DNA of 10,112 nucleotides from positions 1-10,112 of the forward strand of contig JALLBK010000690.1 in assembly GCA_036940085.1 (NCBI GenBank), in the 5' to 3' direction. Shown here in pieces: positions 1,265 through 9,474 of the stretch; positions within the stretch are counted from its first letter, which is position 1, and each line of letters opens with the position of its first letter. This DNA comes from Discostella pseudostelligera (lineage: Eukaryota; Bacillariophyta; Thalassiosirophyceae; Thalassiosirales; Thalassiosiraceae). Made by a program: the position numbers and the translations under genes. Below the pieces are notes generated by a model. That model ran no database searches. It was not told the origin of the DNA and saw only the letters and a program-made list of their open reading frames with translations.

Positions 1265-2935
1265 CTAAAATAAACCAGCCTCCGCATGGCATTCATTTTC
1301 ATAAATCTGCTTCAAAGACTGTCGCTTCCTTATTAAATGAACCTTTCCTTCCAAATCAACAAGAACCTCTGGTGCCTCCGGGAAGCTATTGTAATTCTTA
1401 GTCGACATGCCAGCACAGTATGCACCACTGCCATCCATAACTGCAATATCACCAATCTGAGCCGTGCGTAGACTACGTTCCGCAAGTGCCTCGGGTTCAC
1501 CGGGTTTGGGTGTCATGAGATCTCCAGACTCACAGCAGTGCCCGACCACCACGACGCTTTCCATGGAGGTACCAACGTCGGAGGATTTACCCGATGCAGG
1601 GAGGATAGTTATCGGGTGGATTGCTCCGTAGAGAGAAGGACGAAGGACATCTGTCATCCCAGCATCCATCTTAAGAAAGATGTGCCCAGCATCTCCTGAT
1701 GATGATTTGGTAGAGACCTGTAGCAATCGATTTCAATAAATAGAGCATCACGCGACTATTCTCACAGTTGATAACACTCCAATGGGGAATATTTTGCACA
1801 TACCTTGTCCTGAATTGTAGTAACAAGTGCCCCAGCATTGGCTACCAAATACGTACCCGGCTCAATCTCCATCTTTAATTCCCTTCCATGCTCTTTGGCA
1901 AAATCCCTAAATGCATCCGCGACGGGAGCACCAATCTCTTTCAAATCGGTAGTCTTTTCTCCAGCATTCCGTCCCACCTTGTACCCCCCACCCAAATTCA
2001 ACGTTGTTACCGTATCCCACAAGGCGCAGAACGATAGCGATGTTTTGGCCACCGATTGCCAAATCGCAGGATCGGAACCCGATCCAATATGAGTATGTAT
2101 CCTTTCCACTTCCAAGCCGTACTTTTCAACAATGGATGGCACGGTCCCATCCGAGACGAGTTCGTGCCATATCCCAAAGGAGGAGGCAGGACCACCGACG
2201 TTGGTCTTTGAGAATCCGGTAGCAGAGGAGGAGAAGCCTCCAGATCCTACACCGGGATTAATGCGTACGCCCACCTTTTGGGAAGTGTTGGCAAATGCCT
2301 GTCCGAAGCGTTCTAGTTGAGATATGGAGCTGGGATGATGGCAAACAAATAATTGGGATAAGAAACGATACATTTATTACGAAAGCAATATCAAAAACAA
2401 GTTATAAAGTCAATGCAATTCTCACGGTGCACCACAGCTCGACTCACCAAGCATTGATCTTCACACCCAACTTAACCAACTCATCAAAATCATGGGGCAG
2501 TTCCTGCGAACTCAAACTAATCTTCTCTGCCGGGACACCCATGTCCATTGCCCTGCGAACCTCGAAGCCACTGCTAGCATCGATGCAAATTCCTCTACTC
2601 AAGAAGTACTTTAATATGGTTCCATTAGGACACGCCTTCATGGCATAACGAACAGTAAGACCATATGCATTTGGGAAGGCGAGGCAGTCATCGGCAGACT
2701 TGGCGAGCGTCGCGAGGGAGTAGGCGTACAATGGTGTCCCGGAGGCAACGTCGATGCAGGATTGGGCGAGTTCCGGCGTTAAGAAGTTCGAGGCGGCGGG
2801 CGGAGATTCGGCATGGAGAGATGTTGCGCTGATGACTGATGATGAGATGCGGGGTTTGATGGGAGCGAATGCGTCAACAGTTGACGCTAGGGCCATCAAG
2901 ATGGCGAGGGTGGAGGGTGATGCTCTCATCTTCAT
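1265..2935 (-). CDS. lysA: Plastid-targeted diaminopimelate decarboxylase (three exons)
   Basis: This PLP enzyme makes L-lysine and CO2 from meso-diaminopimelate, the last step of the DAP pathway. Exons are 2935-2448, 2329-1804 and 1717-1265; the joins keep frame and give 488 aa. Residues 1-22 form a signal peptide and the junction VDA|FAP (22-25) matches the plastid ASAFAP-type motif, so import into the plastid is expected. Visible enzyme motifs are the PLP lysine in YAMKAC (Lys100), HIGSG (243-247), the Gly-rich loop LGGGYK (275-280), EIEPG (317-321), the catalytic cysteine in CESGD (Cys400) and GAYC (436-439, Tyr438). The segment [16 protein letters not shown] and the C-terminal [12 protein letters not shown] and LIRKRQSL resemble E. 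coli-type LysA rather than the plant enzyme. The start is the first ATG; a second ATG is two codons later. The gene shares a 334-bp promoter with the divergent membrane-protein gene. No truncation or missing key residue was seen. Confidence 0.93.
1718..1803 (-). other. lysA intron 2 (86 bp, phase 0)
   Basis: Reading on the minus strand, the donor is AAG|GTATGT and the acceptor is CTACAG|GTC. Removing it joins residues QDK to VSTK and restores the family sequence. It contains in-frame stops, so it must be removed. Confidence 0.9.
2330..2447 (-). other. lysA intron 1 (118 bp, phase 2)
   Basis: The donor is GCTTG|GTGAGT and the acceptor is ATCCCAG|CTCC on the minus strand. The split codon becomes TGC (Cys163) and yields the join [13 protein letters not shown], which fits the conserved N-A-(C/G)-S segment of LysA. 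The spliced frame is unbroken on both sides. Confidence 0.92.
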
Positions 2936-3269
2936 GGTTCACTGCATTTTGTGTTGGTTGCGGCGCCCGCTGATCCATCTAGTGATCTATGCTATCGATC
3001 GGCTGCCCGATCTTTCTTCTGTCAGCGTCAGGATTGGAATTCCACGTGGAGTTAGGTGAGAACAAATGAATTCCACGTGGACAATATCTTTTGTCTGTCT
3101 GGCGTCAGGATTTTGTTCAAAGATCTTCCCGCTCTGACGTCAGAAGTTTCTTTAGCGTCTGCTGTCGATGACGTCACACGCCTCTTGACACCTCTCAACG
3201 ACGAGCCACGTGCCTCGAAATCAAAGGGATAAGACCATGAAGGCCGCCGGCTTGCGGGCGTACTGAAAG
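2936..3269. promoter_or_regulatory. Bidirectional promoter between lysA and the membrane-protein gene
   Basis: This 334-bp gap lies between two divergent start codons. It holds three CACGTG G-boxes (3043-3048, 3074-3079, 3207-3212). The first two sit in an identical 14-mer, GAATTCCACGTGGA (3037-3050 and 3068-3081), 31 bp apart, about three helical turns. Two full CRE palindromes TGACGTCA lie at 3135-3142 and 3169-3176, 34 bp apart. An 11-mer, GCGTCAGGATT, is repeated at 3025-3035 and 3102-3112. G-boxes and CREs are typical sites for bHLH and bZIP factors. CRE-like TGACGT elements have been described in diatom promoters that respond to CO2 and cAMP. Binding here is inferred. Confidence 0.7.
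3237..3266 (+). promoter_or_regulatory. Short upstream ORF (9 codons plus stop) before the membrane-protein gene
   Basis: An ATG with a strong context (ACCATGA, A at -3) opens a frame encoding MKAAGLRAY that stops at TGA 3264-3266, three bases before the main ATG at 3270. If it lies in the transcript, ribosomes would meet it first, and it could limit translation of the main ORF or require reinitiation. Whether transcription starts upstream of 3237 cannot be seen from the sequence. Confidence 0.35.
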
Positions 3270-4571
3270 ATGCACCACGCTATGATGTGCAGTACTAAAT
3301 ATATTCTCGTTCTCGTCGGTTTGCCTTTCAGTTCCCCATTCTCGACAAAACAATCCTCAATAGTAGAGGTACATTCCCATCGACGAAATCACATCCTACG
3401 CATCGCCGACGCAACAATTCCAACCACATTCATCCAGTCAACTCGCACCCCGACACACATTCATGCATACAGAAAAGGATCAGAAATATGGCCCGAATGC
3501 AACGAAGATCCAATTCGTTTAGCGGCATCGTTTCCAGGGGGCGTGATTCCTCAACCGGCGAAGGACCTACTGGATTTCACGTCTTCTACTTCTACAGCTA
3601 ATATCACCCCAATCTCACCCATATTATCAACAACTTCGTCGGACGCGTCATCTACTAATGACATAGTAGCATCACCATCCTATCCAACAAGAGGGATCAA
3701 ACGGCGTGCAGTACGCACGACACTATCCCACATTCTCCGTTCGGCGGCACAAGCATCGACGCGTCGAGCACGCTCGCATTCCACACTTGGCAGAGTGTAT
3801 GGTCAAACGTTTGGTGTGCCACCCCCGGCAATAAGCAAAGGTCCATCAATTATAGCATTGATATTATTGGGAACGAACTGTGTCAATTTTCATGACATTG
3901 TATCCGTGATATTGTTGAGTACCTACATCATTGGACTGGCATCATGGTGCGTTGCACCGAAAGTTGCTAGCACACCGCATCATCCGATTGTGAATATGCC
4001 ATCATTTCCAAGTAAAGGACATGTTCCTGCTTTGATAAGTAATCCGTTGGGTGTATCATTGACTAATTCAAGACTGTATAAAACTTGGCTGCGATTGGGG
4101 GCAGTAGTTGGGGTATTGCTACCCATCATGGTGTTGGCGCAATTGACATTCAGCAGCCACTATCCAATACTTACCAATACACTACTGGGTAACATCAACA
4201 CAGACAACATTGGAGAGTTGAAGAGGACTATAGGAGGGCATACATTTCTACTTTGCTGTCAGGCACTCACAGAGTCCTTGTCACGTGCGGCATTATTACC
4301 ACTACCAATCCGAATACTCATTCCAGTCTCCTACAGCGCATTACGGATATCTTCCCTACAATCGTGGGCGTTTTCAGCATCCGAATCTGTGATGCCCCTG
4401 TCGATTCGGGTTCTAGGAATTGTGAATCTCTTGTTTTGGTTTGCTAATCTAATATTCTTCCTGATTCCTGTGGGTGTAATACGGTACCTGAGAGCTCATT
4501 TCTATTGCGTCGAGGCGGAAGAAGTGACGGTCAGGAAAGGGGGAGAGAGTTCGATTGGTCTATTGCCTTGA
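3270..4571 (+). CDS. Unrecognised multi-pass membrane protein (433 aa)
   Basis: A single open frame runs from ATG 3270 to the stop at 4571. The N-terminus (residues about 10-22, YILVLVGLPFSSP) looks like a signal sequence or anchor. A Ser/Thr-rich, basic, probably unstructured stretch follows to about residue 185, including an Arg-rich part near 142-171. The second half is a membrane domain with about five to six hydrophobic segments, near 193-228 (one or two), 275-293, 322-338, 341-360 and 379-402. A conserved-looking stretch, SNPLGVSLTNSRLYKTWLRL, lies at 257-276 just before a membrane segment. The tail is short and polar. I do not recognise the family. A leader, a long low-complexity linker and a C-terminal membrane domain would suit an organelle-envelope protein, but that is inference. 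The gene is divergent from lysA and convergent with the hydrolase gene. Later in-frame ATGs at residues 5 and 6 are alternative starts. Confidence 0.75.
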   Translation: MHHAMMCSTKYILVLVGLPFSSPFSTKQSSIVEVHSHRRNHILRIADATIPTTFIQSTRTPTHIHAYRKGSEIWPECNEDPIRLAASFPGGVIPQPAKDLLDFTSSTSTANITPISPILSTTSSDASSTNDIVASPSYPTRGIKRRAVRTTLSHILRSAAQASTRRARSHSTLGRVYGQTFGVPPPAISKGPSIIALILLGTNCVNFHDIVSVILLSTYIIGLASWCVAPKVASTPHHPIVNMPSFPSKGHVPALISNPLGVSLTNSRLYKTWLRLGAVVGVLLPIMVLAQLTFSSHYPILTNTLLGNINTDNIGELKRTIGGHTFLLCCQALTESLSRAALLPLPIRILIPVSYSALRISSLQSWAFSASESVMPLSIRVLGIVNLLFWFANLIFFLIPVGVIRYLRAHFYCVEAEEVTVRKGGESSIGLLP

Positions 4572-4674: not shown

Positions 4675-5460
4675 TCAGAGTTGCTTATCCAGCCAATCAA
4701 GGACAACCTTTGCCACAAGCGGGTCATACCTCGAGCTTTCTAATTCGAAGTGTCCAACCTTTGGTACAATTTCGACAACGACATTGTCATCATTACCATT
4801 TTGTGCTCGCGCTTTGTTTGCCATGTCCTCGAGTTGATCTACCGACGTGAATTCATCCCTCTCTCCCATTATGAACAGTTTGGGAATTGACGACGAAGAC
4901 GACGATACAACAGATGAAAAATGTCTACCAAAGCCGATTGAAGCAAAATTTCCAAAGGTATACCCCACTGCAACGTAGGCTGATTCAGAAATGTTCCCAA
5001 GTTGTTGTTGTAGTTGAGACATGACGGTCCCAGCAATTGGTGCACCTGCCGATGATCCAAGGAGGACAATCCTCTCATCTATGCCATACTTCTGATGGAC
5101 CCATTGCACTACATCGACAGTCTGGTGTACTTCGTAGGCGTGGCTCGAGCAAATTCCCCATATCGCGCCACCTTGCCAGAAGGAATTCGATTTGAGGGTG
5201 AATGTAACGACCCTCCAAAAGGAAGTAATGCCACTTCCGTCAACATCTCTTTCTGATTTGTTAATTTGGCGATTTACAATATGTCGAGCAAGGCCAATTG
5301 TATTATGTTCTCCTCCTCCGAGCGCTGACCAAGGGTGGATTGTTACGATCGTTCCTCGAATAGTGATAGGTGACGATCCGCCTGCTGGCTCGAAGACGTG
5401 AGCATCAATCACTCCTGCAGTTACGGATGGGATAGAATGGCTAGATATTGTTGGCTTCAT
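4675..5460 (-). CDS. Alpha/beta hydrolase (261 aa, single exon)
   Basis: The fold and a full catalytic triad are visible. The nucleophile elbow GSSAG is at 135-139 with Ser137 after a hydrophobic strand (RIVLLGSS). The acid is probably Asp202 in FIMGERDEFTS, and the histidine is His237 in VPKVGHFELE. The HPWS segment at 42-45 after strand TIVTIHPW is a likely oxyanion loop, as in dienelactone-hydrolase-like and COG2945-type proteins. The C-terminal helix (DPLVAKVVLDWLDKQL) is typical of the fold. There is no signal peptide, so the protein is probably cytosolic. A run of six serines (186-191) marks a loop. The substrate cannot be deduced; esterase, thioesterase or peptidase activities are all possible. 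The length fits a complete small hydrolase. It is convergent with the membrane-protein gene and divergent from the Alg13-like gene. Confidence 0.85.
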   Translation of the reverse strand: MKPTISSHSIPSVTAGVIDAHVFEPAGGSSPITIRGTIVTIHPWSALGGGEHNTIGLARHIVNRQINKSERDVDGSGITSFWRVVTFTLKSNSFWQGGAIWGICSSHAYEVHQTVDVVQWVHQKYGIDERIVLLGSSAGAPIAGTVMSQLQQQLGNISESAYVAVGYTFGNFASIGFGRHFSSVVSSSSSSIPKLFIMGERDEFTSVDQLEDMANKARAQNGNDDNVVVEIVPKVGHFELESSRYDPLVAKVVLDWLDKQL

Positions 5461-5573
5461 GAGATGGCCGTGAAAATCCTAGTCAATCAGAGCAGACGGT
5501 AACAGTCCTATCCTTCCATCTTGGCCTTGGGTTCATTCATCTTCTGTCTACTGCTATTGCACCGACAGCTTCA

Positions 5574-6001: not shown

Positions 6002-6778
6002 ATGAATAGATCAATATTCGCCACCGTTGGCACTACATCGTTTGACGATTTCGTGAAATCATTGTGCTCTCTTCAATTTTTGACCGCAATGGCCAATCAT
6101 GACTATTGGGCTAGCTCTCATCGCGGACTGTTCGGCGACAATAATCCAACGTTGGATTTTACTATTCAATACGGCAGAGGTCAGTGTCCCATATCATATA
6201 TACCGTCGTGTCTCCTGGACAAGTGCACACCACAACCCCCTGTCGATATGGATGAAGGAATAATAATTTTATCCATACCCATCAAATCATCAGTACCGAC
6301 CAAACAAACTTTGCATCGAGTACAACTTCGATATTTTAGATTCAAACCCTCCCTTACTGATGATATGGATCGTGCTGATATTATCATATGTCATGCCGGC
6401 GCTGGGACATTATTGGAAGCGTTATCTTTGACTTCACCATCCGAACGAAAATCATCGTCAAATCAAAAGATTATTAATGCGGTAATCAACTCGAAACTGA
6501 TGGATAATCACCAATCGGAGTTGGCTGATGAGTTGGAAATGCGTGGACACATTTCCGTTACACGAAATTGCGAGTCGATATGGACTAACGAAGTTTGGGC
6601 AAAAGCTTTTTGGGAAATGATCGGGACATTCGAACCGGTGCCTTTCTTTGGTGGAAGGAGCAATGGAGATGATGAAGGTGGGAGGGGAGTGAATGGTCAT
6701 GCGAGCAGTTTTCAACATATTCTTGATCAAGTAATGAGTGGTGACGAAACATCATGGAATAGGGACGACTCTATGTAG
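6002..6778 (+). CDS. ALG13: Alg13-type UDP-N-acetylglucosamine transferase subunit (258 aa)
   Basis: Alg13 is the catalytic, soluble subunit that binds membrane-bound Alg14 on the cytosolic ER face. Together they add the second GlcNAc to GlcNAc-PP-dolichol in N-glycan assembly. The sequence shows the N-terminal strand and loop FATVGTTSFDDFV (6-18), TIQYGRG (54-60), the UDP-GlcNAc-binding motif ICHAGAGTLLEAL (129-141), and KLMDNHQSELADELEMRGHI (165-184), all typical of the GT28/Alg13 family. The tail SFQHILDQVM (236-245) fits the family end. Extra Ser/Lys-rich residues (144-156) lie between the HAGAGT helix and the INSKLMDNH segment, and an acidic Gly-rich loop lies at 218-233. The start is the first ATG after an in-frame TAA at 5909-5911. 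No introns are needed, and there is no membrane anchor, as expected. The ALG14 partner is not in the window. Confidence 0.9.
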   Translation: MNRSIFATVGTTSFDDFVKSLCSLQFLTAMANHDYWASSHRGLFGDNNPTLDFTIQYGRGQCPISYIPSCLLDKCTPQPPVDMDEGIIILSIPIKSSVPTKQTLHRVQLRYFRFKPSLTDDMDRADIIICHAGAGTLLEALSLTSPSERKSSSNQKIINAVINSKLMDNHQSELADELEMRGHISVTRNCESIWTNEVWAKAFWEMIGTFEPVPFFGGRSNGDDEGGRGVNGHASSFQHILDQVMSGDETSWNRDDSM

Positions 6779-6897: not shown

Positions 6898-8736
6898 TCA
6901 TGTCATTTGCATTTCTTCTTGTTCTTCTTCTTTGTCGGACTCTCCAATCTTCTCAATCGGCGACATTATTTTCCAATTGCCGCATTTCAGTCCAGCATCT
7001 TCGTCTTTGATCCAACAAGTTATAATTGCTGCCAGGGCACTGCTTAATGTTCCCGCTAAAAGACAAGCAGCAAATCCTATCCTTGCATCCATCCCTGGAT
7101 TGTAGCCGAATAAGTTTTCTAACGACCCGCCAGCATAGGTAAAAATGAAGCCACTTCCCAATGTTCCGAGCAAGCGACCGAGCGCGTTACTCATGTAATA
7201 AAATCCAACGCTGACCGCGACTTTGTCACGTGCAGCATACTTCACAACCAAAAACGAATGGATGGACGAATTAATTGCAAATATCACTGCAAAAGAAATG
7301 ATGATAATAGCAAGCCATGCTGTCATCGACGGCAATTGATATTGGATGAAGGATTCGCTTGCATAGACGACGATAGTTCCTATCAATGTGGGGTAGCAAT
7401 TAAAGATTCCCCAGAACACTTCAGTCATCTTATTTGGAGGAGACTGATTCAAAGGTCCAGTGACGAGTTGAGGCGTCCAACTCTGAACCTGTCCGTACAG
7501 GATTATGTAGCCACCAAGGACTGCTCCGACAAGAACACGGTTTAAACCTTGTGGCGAATTCAGCAATATCTGGTTAGATGAGCATATCTCCGGTGTAATA
7601 CAGGAGCAAATTCTTAAACATACCTAATCCACCACATCCGCCTCCAGGATTTGGATTTGTACAGAAGTCAGTAGGTGCTTCGCAAACAGCGCCACGAGTG
7701 CATTGGTCCGCATCCTCAGGCGAGCAAGGAAAATCAGGGCCCAACGCTTGACAATCAGGACTTCTGAGGTAAAACGGTAGCTAATTAAACAGTATCGGTT
7801 AGAGGAGGCCTCGACAGAAAAGTGACGATGCTCTTCATTGACACTCACCGGAACTTCAAACCAAAAATCTCTCGATGCAAACAAGAACAATCTCGCAAAA
7901 CTCAATACGTTCAGGTTGAAATTATCGAGCACAAATATCTCCTTCCATGATGAGTTCTTCTTCTTTGCAGTTCCCAGATCTTTATTCAGGCCGAATATCG
8001 CAAAGGGCAATGCAATCGCGATCAGCCCAATCATAAACCCAAGCGCTAATTCATAGCTGACTTCCATCAAGGCACTTCCAAGGAAATAGCCCACTCCTTT
8101 CAAAGAATTTTTCCATCCGGTTAACAGGCTCACCAACCGAAACAGGCGAGTATCCCTTCCTTCTGGTGTCACCAACTTGGTGACTGTTTTCCCTCCCAAT
8201 TTTGTCAAATCTTTTGCAATACCTGCGAACATTTGCGCAACAGTTACGTAGACGATCGCTTGCTCTTTTGACCAATCATCTTGCCAACCAAACATCAGAC
8301 CGTAACTCAATATTTGCAGTAATAGGCCTATGACCAACGTAAACCGAATACCCCACCTAGCCCCCATCATCCCCGCAGCTAAGTTGGTAAAAACCCCGGC
8401 AAGTTCGTACAATGTGAACATGATAGCGACTTCAAGCGCGGAGAAAGATTTGTTGTATGCGTGAAGGAGGACGATCATGCGGATGGCACCATCGGTTATT
8501 GTGAAGAGTAGGTATGTAATGGAGATGACGACAAAGGGGCGTAGGCGAGGGTCTGAAAATCCCCACGTCCCTTGTCCATCATTGGCTGAAGCATTCTGCT
8601 CGGCGTCGTTGGTGTCCCCCCCCTCGCCATCGTCAACACTTATTGGCCCAGTTCCGCCGTCCTCATTTCGCATCAGGATTTCCAAGTCCCTGAGAACAGA
8701 GTTCGTTGCTGCATCTGAGTTCACCATGTTTCTCAT
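6898..8736 (-). CDS. arsJ: ArsJ-like major-facilitator transporter (three exons, 564 aa)
   Basis: Exons are 8736-7849, 7780-7624 and 7547-6898; together they give 564 aa. In bacteria ArsJ exports 1-arseno-3-phosphoglycerate, which GAPDH makes from arsenate and glyceraldehyde 3-phosphate, so the pair confers arsenate resistance. ArsJ-type signatures are the first membrane segment with TDGAIRMIVLLH (81-92), ELAGVFTNLAAGMMGARWG (111-129), AQMFAGIAKDLTKLGGK (167-183), LTGWKNSLKGVGYFLG (205-220), ARLFLFASRDFWFEVP (281-296), FAINSSIHSFLVVKYA (438-453) and VGFYYMSNALGRLLGTL (462-478). The first ~58 residues are acidic and soluble and the tail is acidic (SDKEEEQEE). Exon 2 encodes an extra loop with six cysteines (306, 315, 323, 329, 336, 345) between the middle membrane segments. 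A G8 run (8616-8623) lies in the acidic N-terminal part with frame intact. No GAPDH gene is adjacent. The membrane it sits in is unknown. The family call is firm; the arsenical substrate is inferred from homology. Confidence 0.82.
7548..7623 (-). other. ArsJ-like gene intron 2 (76 bp, phase 1)
   Basis: The donor TTAG|GTATGT is strong. The frame-keeping acceptor is CACAAG|GTTTAAAC, which gives CGGLGLNRVLVGA. A candidate branch point CTAAC lies about 24 bp before it. A more typical CAG (7570-7572) lies 22 bp upstream but breaks the frame. Confidence 0.7.
7781..7848 (-). other. ArsJ-like gene intron 1 (68 bp, phase 0)
   Basis: The donor is CCG|GTGAGT and the acceptor is TTTAATTAG|CTACCG on the minus strand. 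The join reads FEVPLPFYL, matching the (V/L)P-x-FL pattern after the conserved R-D-x-W-F segment in the family. Confidence 0.85.
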
Positions 8737-9329: not shown

Positions 9330-9401
9330 AGTTTCAATTTTGATGTAATGGCCAGAGAGAAAATATTTCAGTTTTCGCTCCCACTTGATTCCGATAGTTG
9401 G
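9330..9401 (+). repeat. 72-bp exact duplicate, copy 1
   Basis: This copy is identical to 9403-9474 and separated from it by a single N at 9402. The first base is the A of AGTTTCAATTTTG and the last bases are GATAGTTGG. Confidence 0.95.
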
Positions 9402-9402
9402 N
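9402..9402. other. Assembly gap (single N)
   Basis: This is the only ambiguous base in the window, placed exactly between two identical 72-bp stretches. It most likely marks a scaffold join where overlapping contig ends were not merged. Confidence 0.85.
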
Positions 9403-9474
9403 AGTTTCAATTTTGATGTAATGGCCAGAGAGAAAATATTTCAGTTTTCGCTCCCACTTGATTCCGATAGTTGG
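9403..9474 (+). repeat. 72-bp exact duplicate, copy 2
   Basis: The second copy of the 72-bp block; see 9330-9401. The sequences diverge immediately outside both copies. Confidence 0.95.

What the first reader, a model, noticed from the sequence alone, without database searches (positions are those of the whole stretch)
6898..8736. ArsJ-type organoarsenical exporter encoded in an algal nuclear genome
The spliced protein matches the ArsJ subfamily along nearly its whole membrane domain, and three exons show it is a real eukaryotic gene rather than bacterial contamination. ArsJ was characterised in bacteria, where it works with a dedicated GAPDH beside it. Here no GAPDH gene is adjacent, so any partner would be a resident GAPDH. 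This suggests an arsenate-detoxification route acquired by transfer and then fitted with introns and extra N- and C-terminal regions.
Basis: partly seen in the sequence, partly recalled or inferred. Interest (0 to 1): 0.75.

Follow-up and report, generated by a model that had tools for sequence, protein, structure and literature searches.

The report
Diatom version of algal arsenic exporter
This diatom gene encodes ArsJ, a membrane pump that a green alga needs to tolerate arsenate; the diatom form has an extra cysteine-rich loop and, in this draft genome, no visible dedicated partner enzyme.

Summary
In detail: a three-exon minus-strand gene (8736-6898) encodes a 564-aa MFS protein. Its only NCBIfam match is ArsJ, NF033734: 340 bits, E 2e-101, but below the curated 400. 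So are 10 of 10 other eukaryotic ArsJs scanned (341-399), while 4 of 4 bacterial ones exceed it (524-631). A 91-row tree splits eukaryotes from bacteria at 100/100 and puts the window with Thalassiosira and Skeletonema: an ordinary diatom member of a eukaryotic ArsJ clade, not a private acquisition. Algal ArsJ is already published: green algae carry ArsJ-GAPDH3-PGK neighbourhoods and a Chlamydomonas arsJ mutant is arsenate-sensitive (PMC7826186); Cyanidiales carry arsJ alone (PMC9812998). Two features were not in the passages I read. A six-cysteine loop, encoded almost exactly by exon 2, marks the ochrophyte-type branch. And the draft assembly shows no ars-type GAPDH; its four GAPDH loci look canonical. 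Most likely it exports 1-arseno-3-phosphoglycerate made by a resident GAPDH; that step is inferred.

The parts
7849..8736 (-). arsJ exon 1, residues 1-296: low-complexity N-tail and membrane region up to about TM7
7781..7848 (-). intron 1, 68 bp, GT-AG
7624..7780 (-). arsJ exon 2, residues 297-349: almost exactly the six-cysteine loop between about TM7 and TM8
7548..7623 (-). intron 2, 76 bp, GT-AG
6898..7547 (-). arsJ exon 3 with TGA stop: C-terminal membrane half and acidic tail
6002..6778 (+). convergent neighbour with Glyco_tran_28_C domain (ALG13-like, name recalled); start codon assumed; not an arsenic gene

Best explanation
The gene is the diatom orthologue of eukaryotic ArsJ. Shown here: family, exon structure, conservation across named diatoms and a bolidophyte, a predicted MFS fold for a 77%-identical relative, and ordinary GAPDH genes in the same assembly. 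Inferred: arsenate enters by phosphate carriers; a resident GAPDH makes 1-arseno-3-phosphoglycerate from glyceraldehyde-3-phosphate and arsenate; ArsJ moves this anion out of the cytosol, where it falls apart, giving arsenate tolerance. The six-cysteine loop should face the non-cytosolic side and is probably disulphide-bonded, acting as a stabilising or gating ectodomain.
For: ArsJ is the only NCBIfam match. 75 columns are invariant among the window, two other ochrophytes and seven bacterial ArsJs, including charged motifs (DGAxR, KDLxK, GxKNxxKG, RDxWF, NSxxHS, GR) that would suit an anionic substrate. The window lies on the eukaryotic side with C. reinhardtii, 100/100, and a Chlamydomonas arsJ insertion mutant is arsenate-sensitive (PMC7826186). 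85 of 87 bacterial arsJ loci examined have a GAPDH in the same fetched stretch, tying the family to this chemistry. The model of P0007 has pLDDT 83.8 and matches MFS structures, SLC37A4/G6PT among them. The assembly has two ArsM-like frames and no ACR3 match, so a separate arsenate route would be useful.
Against: The score is below the curated ArsJ cut-off. In the green algae surveyed, ArsJ and the special GAPDH3 are both present or both absent (PMC7826186), yet no ars-type GAPDH was found here, so the chemistry may differ. PMC9812998 describes red algal arsJ as working in As(III) efflux, not arsenate. Structural neighbours are mixed (drug, amine, lipid and sugar-phosphate carriers), so the fold does not fix the substrate. 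No expression or arsenate phenotype is known to me for this gene. The motif GNATATNC does not occur upstream of it.
Confidence: 0.7

Rival explanations
1. The ochrophyte branch has shifted substrate: it keeps the ArsJ fold but carries another phosphorylated or arsenic-bearing organic anion (a phosphoglycerate, or an arsenosugar intermediate made downstream of ArsM).
For: No ars-type GAPDH in the assembly; the five ochrophyte ArsJs scanned score 340-354 bits against 372-399 for six other eukaryotic ones; six-Cys loop; two ArsM-like frames.
Against: The 75 residues invariant with bacterial ArsJ are kept. Much of the score deficit could come from the roughly 46-residue insert.
Confidence: 0.2
2. 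Recent horizontal transfer from a bacterium into this diatom lineage.
For: The family is common in marine bacteria, on plasmids and in genomes, including bacteria isolated with Skeletonema.
Against: No bacterial protein of 87 exceeds 38.2% identity, against 42-84% for 239 fetched eukaryote-side proteins; one eukaryote/bacteria split at 100/100.
Confidence: 0.03
3. Bacterial contamination or mis-assembly.
For: Draft assembly; one N inside a duplicated 73-bp stretch at 9330-9474.
Against: Two GT-AG introns and diatom orthologues at up to 84% identity.
Confidence: 0.01
4. A general MFS sugar or drug transporter with chance ArsJ likeness.
For: Pfam sees only MFS_1; fold neighbours include DHA1 drug pumps.
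Against: ArsJ is the only NCBIfam match at E 0.01, at 340 bits; only 2 of 14 control genomes show any match to the ArsJ model although 14 of 14 have MFS_1 proteins; tree position.
Confidence: 0.03

Closest known systems
Green algal ArsJ (Chlamydomonas reinhardtii and relatives, PMC7826186)
   Same: Same eukaryotic ArsJ clade; the C. reinhardtii protein P0145 also falls below the bacterial cut-off (380 bits).
   Different: There it lies near GAPDH3 and usually a PGK-like gene; here neither is on the contig and no ars-type GAPDH was found. The diatom form has a six-Cys loop; the green rows read here do not.
Cyanidiales arsJ (PMC9812998)
   Same: arsJ present by itself and monophyletic with Viridiplantae and other eukaryotic lineages (authors' statement; their tree was not seen).
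   Different: Red algal; authors assign As(III) efflux; no Cyanidiales sequence was examined here. The two other red algae examined lack the loop.
Bacterial ArsJ with ArsJ-associated GAPDH (NF033734, NF033735)
   Same: Membrane core and invariant charged residues; 33-38% identity.
   Different: GAPDH in the same stretch in 85 of 87 loci; no insert between TM7 and TM8 in 80 of 80 readable proteins; no long tails in the seven aligned.
Pteris vittata GAPC1-OCT4 route (described in PMC9454679, passage read)
   Same: A eukaryote using a plant GAPDH plus a transporter for 1-arseno-3-phosphoglycerate.
   Different: OCT4 is another transporter family; PMC7826186 calls it convergent; it fills vesicles.

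Membership tests
ArsJ (NF033734) | Best curated subfamily match is ArsJ | tested here: met
   the only NCBIfam family at E 0.01
ArsJ (NF033734) | Score over the curated equivalog cut-off of 400 bits | tested here: not met
   340 bits. 10 of 10 other eukaryotic ArsJs scanned are also below (341-399) and 4 of 4 bacterial ones above (524-631). Strict equivalog membership is not claimed; membership of the eukaryotic ArsJ clade is.
Eukaryotic ArsJ clade | Groups with algal ArsJ apart from bacteria | tested here: met
   100/100, 49 eukaryotic against 42 bacterial rows; root not inferred
ArsJ system | Dedicated ArsJ-associated GAPDH next to it or in the genome | tested here: not met
   None on the contig. 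4 GAPDH loci in the draft assembly, each better matched by a canonical GAPDH model than by NF033735 and below its 450 bits; 36-44% identity to five ars-type GAPDHs that share 59-71% among themselves. Two bacterial ars-type GAPDHs score 543 and 581. Completeness of the assembly is not known.
ArsJ | Transports 1-arseno-3-phosphoglycerate and confers arsenate resistance | not testable with these tools
   needs bench work
MFS | MFS fold | tested here: met

The most novel reading that the evidence does not exclude
Ochrophytes uncoupled ArsJ from its dedicated GAPDH: a whole algal lineage discards arsenate as a by-product of ordinary glycolytic or Calvin-cycle GAPDH, through an ArsJ that gained, as a separate exon, a folded six-cysteine ectodomain seen in no other ArsJ examined, possibly a redox- or arsenite-sensing gate.
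Probability: 0.25. Interest if true: 0.6.

Novelty: new variant of a known kind. Interest (0 to 1): 0.4.

Why it matters
Arsenate mimics phosphate, so phosphate-starved diatoms should take it up. An ArsJ shared across diatoms would mean that major ocean primary producers can discard arsenate without first reducing it to arsenite, and it allows a direct test of whether an ordinary GAPDH can feed ArsJ.

Tried and rejected
Fusion of ArsJ to GAPDH or PGK as linking evidence: of 11 long proteins found, ten carry only the MFS domain in the precomputed Pfam column. The exception, a Thalassiosira profunda model with an FAD-binding domain (P0124), reads like a merged gene model and was not taken as a fusion. 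P0035 and P0058 have low-complexity tails.

Phosphate-starvation motif GNATATNC (a plant-type site, recalled): one match in the window, at 3992, against 2.6 expected; none upstream of arsJ.

Solved relatives by sequence: 0 at E 0.01. Fold matches are generic MFS and do not name a substrate.

Papers, eight searches: ArsJ+diatom, 2 papers, neither about a diatom ArsJ by title and abstract; ArsJ+1-arseno-3-phosphoglycerate+eukaryot, 5; ArsJ+alga, 19; arsenate+Phaeodactylum+transcriptom+phosphate, 30 of which 15 listed; organoarsenical+Thalassiosira, 4; ArsJ+horizontal gene transfer+eukaryot, 10; hemichordate+arsen+horizontal gene transfer, 5; diatom+arsenate+GAPDH, 9. Only listings with abstract starts were seen, except passages of PMC7826186, PMC9812998, PMC9454679 and PMC9846622. 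The original ArsJ paper (PMC4992400) was not held and is known only through these passages and recall.

Whether other diatoms have an ars-type GAPDH could not be tested: all three protein searches went to ArsJ. The three PGK loci of the assembly were not classified.

Full report
What is there. The window is the whole of contig C665 (10112 bp) of a 23-Mb, 963-contig assembly. On the minus strand, 8736-6898, three exons give a 564-aa protein. The introns are 68 and 76 bp with GT-AG ends. The junctions agree with close homologues. Pfam sees MFS_1 only; NCBIfam sees ArsJ only, 340 bits over residues 67-488, below the curated 400. As controls, 10 other eukaryotic ArsJs score 341-399 and four bacterial ones 524-631, so the cut-off separates bacteria from eukaryotes rather than ArsJ from something else. 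The ArsJ model matches 2 of 14 control genomes, 1 over its cut-off, and one locus in this assembly.

Relatives. Of 878 homologues at E<=0.001, 120 are listed; the named ones among them are diatoms (Thalassiosira, Skeletonema, Mediolabrus, Odontella, Amphiprora, Seminavis, Nitzschia, Fragilaria, Cylindrotheca, Epithemia, Mayamaea and others) and a bolidophyte (taxid 91992, Triparma pacifica, listed as Bolidomonas). A search from an Ulva relative found 4042 at E<=0.001, 120 listed, with green algae (Chlamydomonas, Volvox, Ostreococcus, Chlorella), Mesostigma, red algae (Rhodochaete, Compsopogon), a Pavlovales haptophyte and three acorn worms among the named. Best-segment identity to the window is 42-84% for the 239 fetched proteins and 33-38% for 87 bacterial proteins.

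Tree. I chose 91 rows by hand: the window, 48 of the 239 proteins, 42 of the 87 bacterial ones; 451 columns were kept and the loop drops out of them. Eukaryotes and bacteria are the two sides of one branch, 100/100; the window groups with two Thalassiosira and a Skeletonema, 100/99; the 15 ochrophyte-type rows form one group, 100/95. The eukaryotic set was gathered by likeness to diatom and Ulva queries, so a missed intermediate is possible. The root is not inferred; bacteria-to-alga direction is the opinion of PMC7826186, not a result here. What the tree speaks against is a recent transfer into this diatom.

The loop. Between about TM7 and TM8 the diatom protein has some 46 extra residues with six cysteines (residues 306-345). 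Of the window plus P0001-P0124 (125), 119 could be read by the pattern and all 119 have six or more cysteines there; of P0125-P0239 (115), 99 could be read and 2 have it (P0205, P0237, both in the ochrophyte-type group of the tree); of 87 bacterial proteins 80 could be read and none has it. Of the 22 unread, P0032, P0054, P0091 and P0113 have the six cysteines, P0124 has a broken version, P0028 could not be read, and 16 show no loop. One Pseudo-nitzschia gene model (P0225), counted above among those without a loop, sits among diatoms and stops inside the loop after its first cysteine; I take it as a gene-model gap and kept it in the ochrophyte-type group. In the window, exon 2 (residues 297-349) is almost exactly this loop. 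In the model of P0007 the loop region 301-350 has mean pLDDT 90-96 per ten residues and three short strands. That it faces outwards follows from usual MFS topology (recalled); that it forms three disulphides is inference.

Partner enzyme. In bacteria, 85 of 87 loci have a GAPDH match (tblastn, E<=1e-20) in the fetched stretch: 78 of 80 genome loci and 7 of 7 plasmid loci, five of which supplied the queries; misses L074 and L093. The window's assembly has four GAPDH loci: a TPI-GAPDH fusion (C238), two with a leader that looks plastid-type (C161, C5; recalled), and one split by introns (C51). Each scores better on a canonical GAPDH model than on the ArsJ-associated one (for C51 its first exon only), and none reaches the latter's cut-off of 450, whereas two bacterial ars-type GAPDHs score 543 and 581. 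Sub-threshold matches to that model mean little: it rings in 11 of 14 control genomes, over the cut-off in 1. Completeness was judged roughly: Cpn60/TCP1 matches on 9 contigs, where 10-11 genes are expected (recalled), and proteasome-family matches on 20, where 14 core subunits are expected (recalled; some may be other proteins of the fold). So absence is suggestive, not proven.

Other arsenic genes. No ACR3 match; the same search rings in 7 of 14 control genomes. Two frames resembling the ArsM arsenite methyltransferase, on C760 and C319, are below that model's cut-off of 263 (245.6 and 193.3 bits); since the model rings in all 14 controls, over the cut-off in 1, these are likely but not certain ArsM genes.

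How it works. Best explanation: export of 1-arseno-3-phosphoglycerate made by an ordinary GAPDH. The chemistry and transporter role come from bacterial work as described in PMC7826186 and PMC9454679; the eukaryotic role rests on the arsenate-sensitive Chlamydomonas arsJ mutant (PMC7826186, passages read). I could not verify that the C. reinhardtii protein used here (P0145) is the product of the mutated locus. PMC9812998 instead speaks of As(III) efflux. In the cyanobacterium Nodularia the ArsJ-associated GAPDH and arsJ rise in at least one of the phosphate-limitation comparisons tabulated (PMC9846622, passage read), which fits arsenate entering as a phosphate mimic.

Verdict. What remains of interest is the ochrophyte form: loop domain and apparent lack of a dedicated GAPDH.

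Noticed in passing
P0161, P0172, P0183: Three acorn worms (Glandiceps, Ptychodera, Saccoglossus) encode ArsJ proteins 52-56% identical to Ulva ArsJ; they form a 100/100 group on the eukaryotic side. Saccoglossus scores 399.2 against the cut-off of 400. One paper search with these terms listed nothing on an animal ArsJ (listings only).
   Followed up: partly
window 9330-9474: Two perfect 73-bp copies with a single N at the join (9402): looks like an assembly join artefact rather than a natural repeat.
   Followed up: no
window 1265-2938, minus strand: PLP-dependent decarboxylase gene in three frames (Orn/DAP/Arg decarboxylase domains), likely diaminopimelate decarboxylase with introns.
   Followed up: no
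window 3267-4571, plus strand: 434-aa frame with DUF7733, a domain of unknown function.
   Followed up: no
window 4675-5478, minus strand: Alpha/beta-hydrolase-like protein with several weak family matches.
   Followed up: no
L115 (C760), L116 (C319): Two ArsM-like methyltransferase reading frames in the same assembly, below the model's cut-off.
   Followed up: partly
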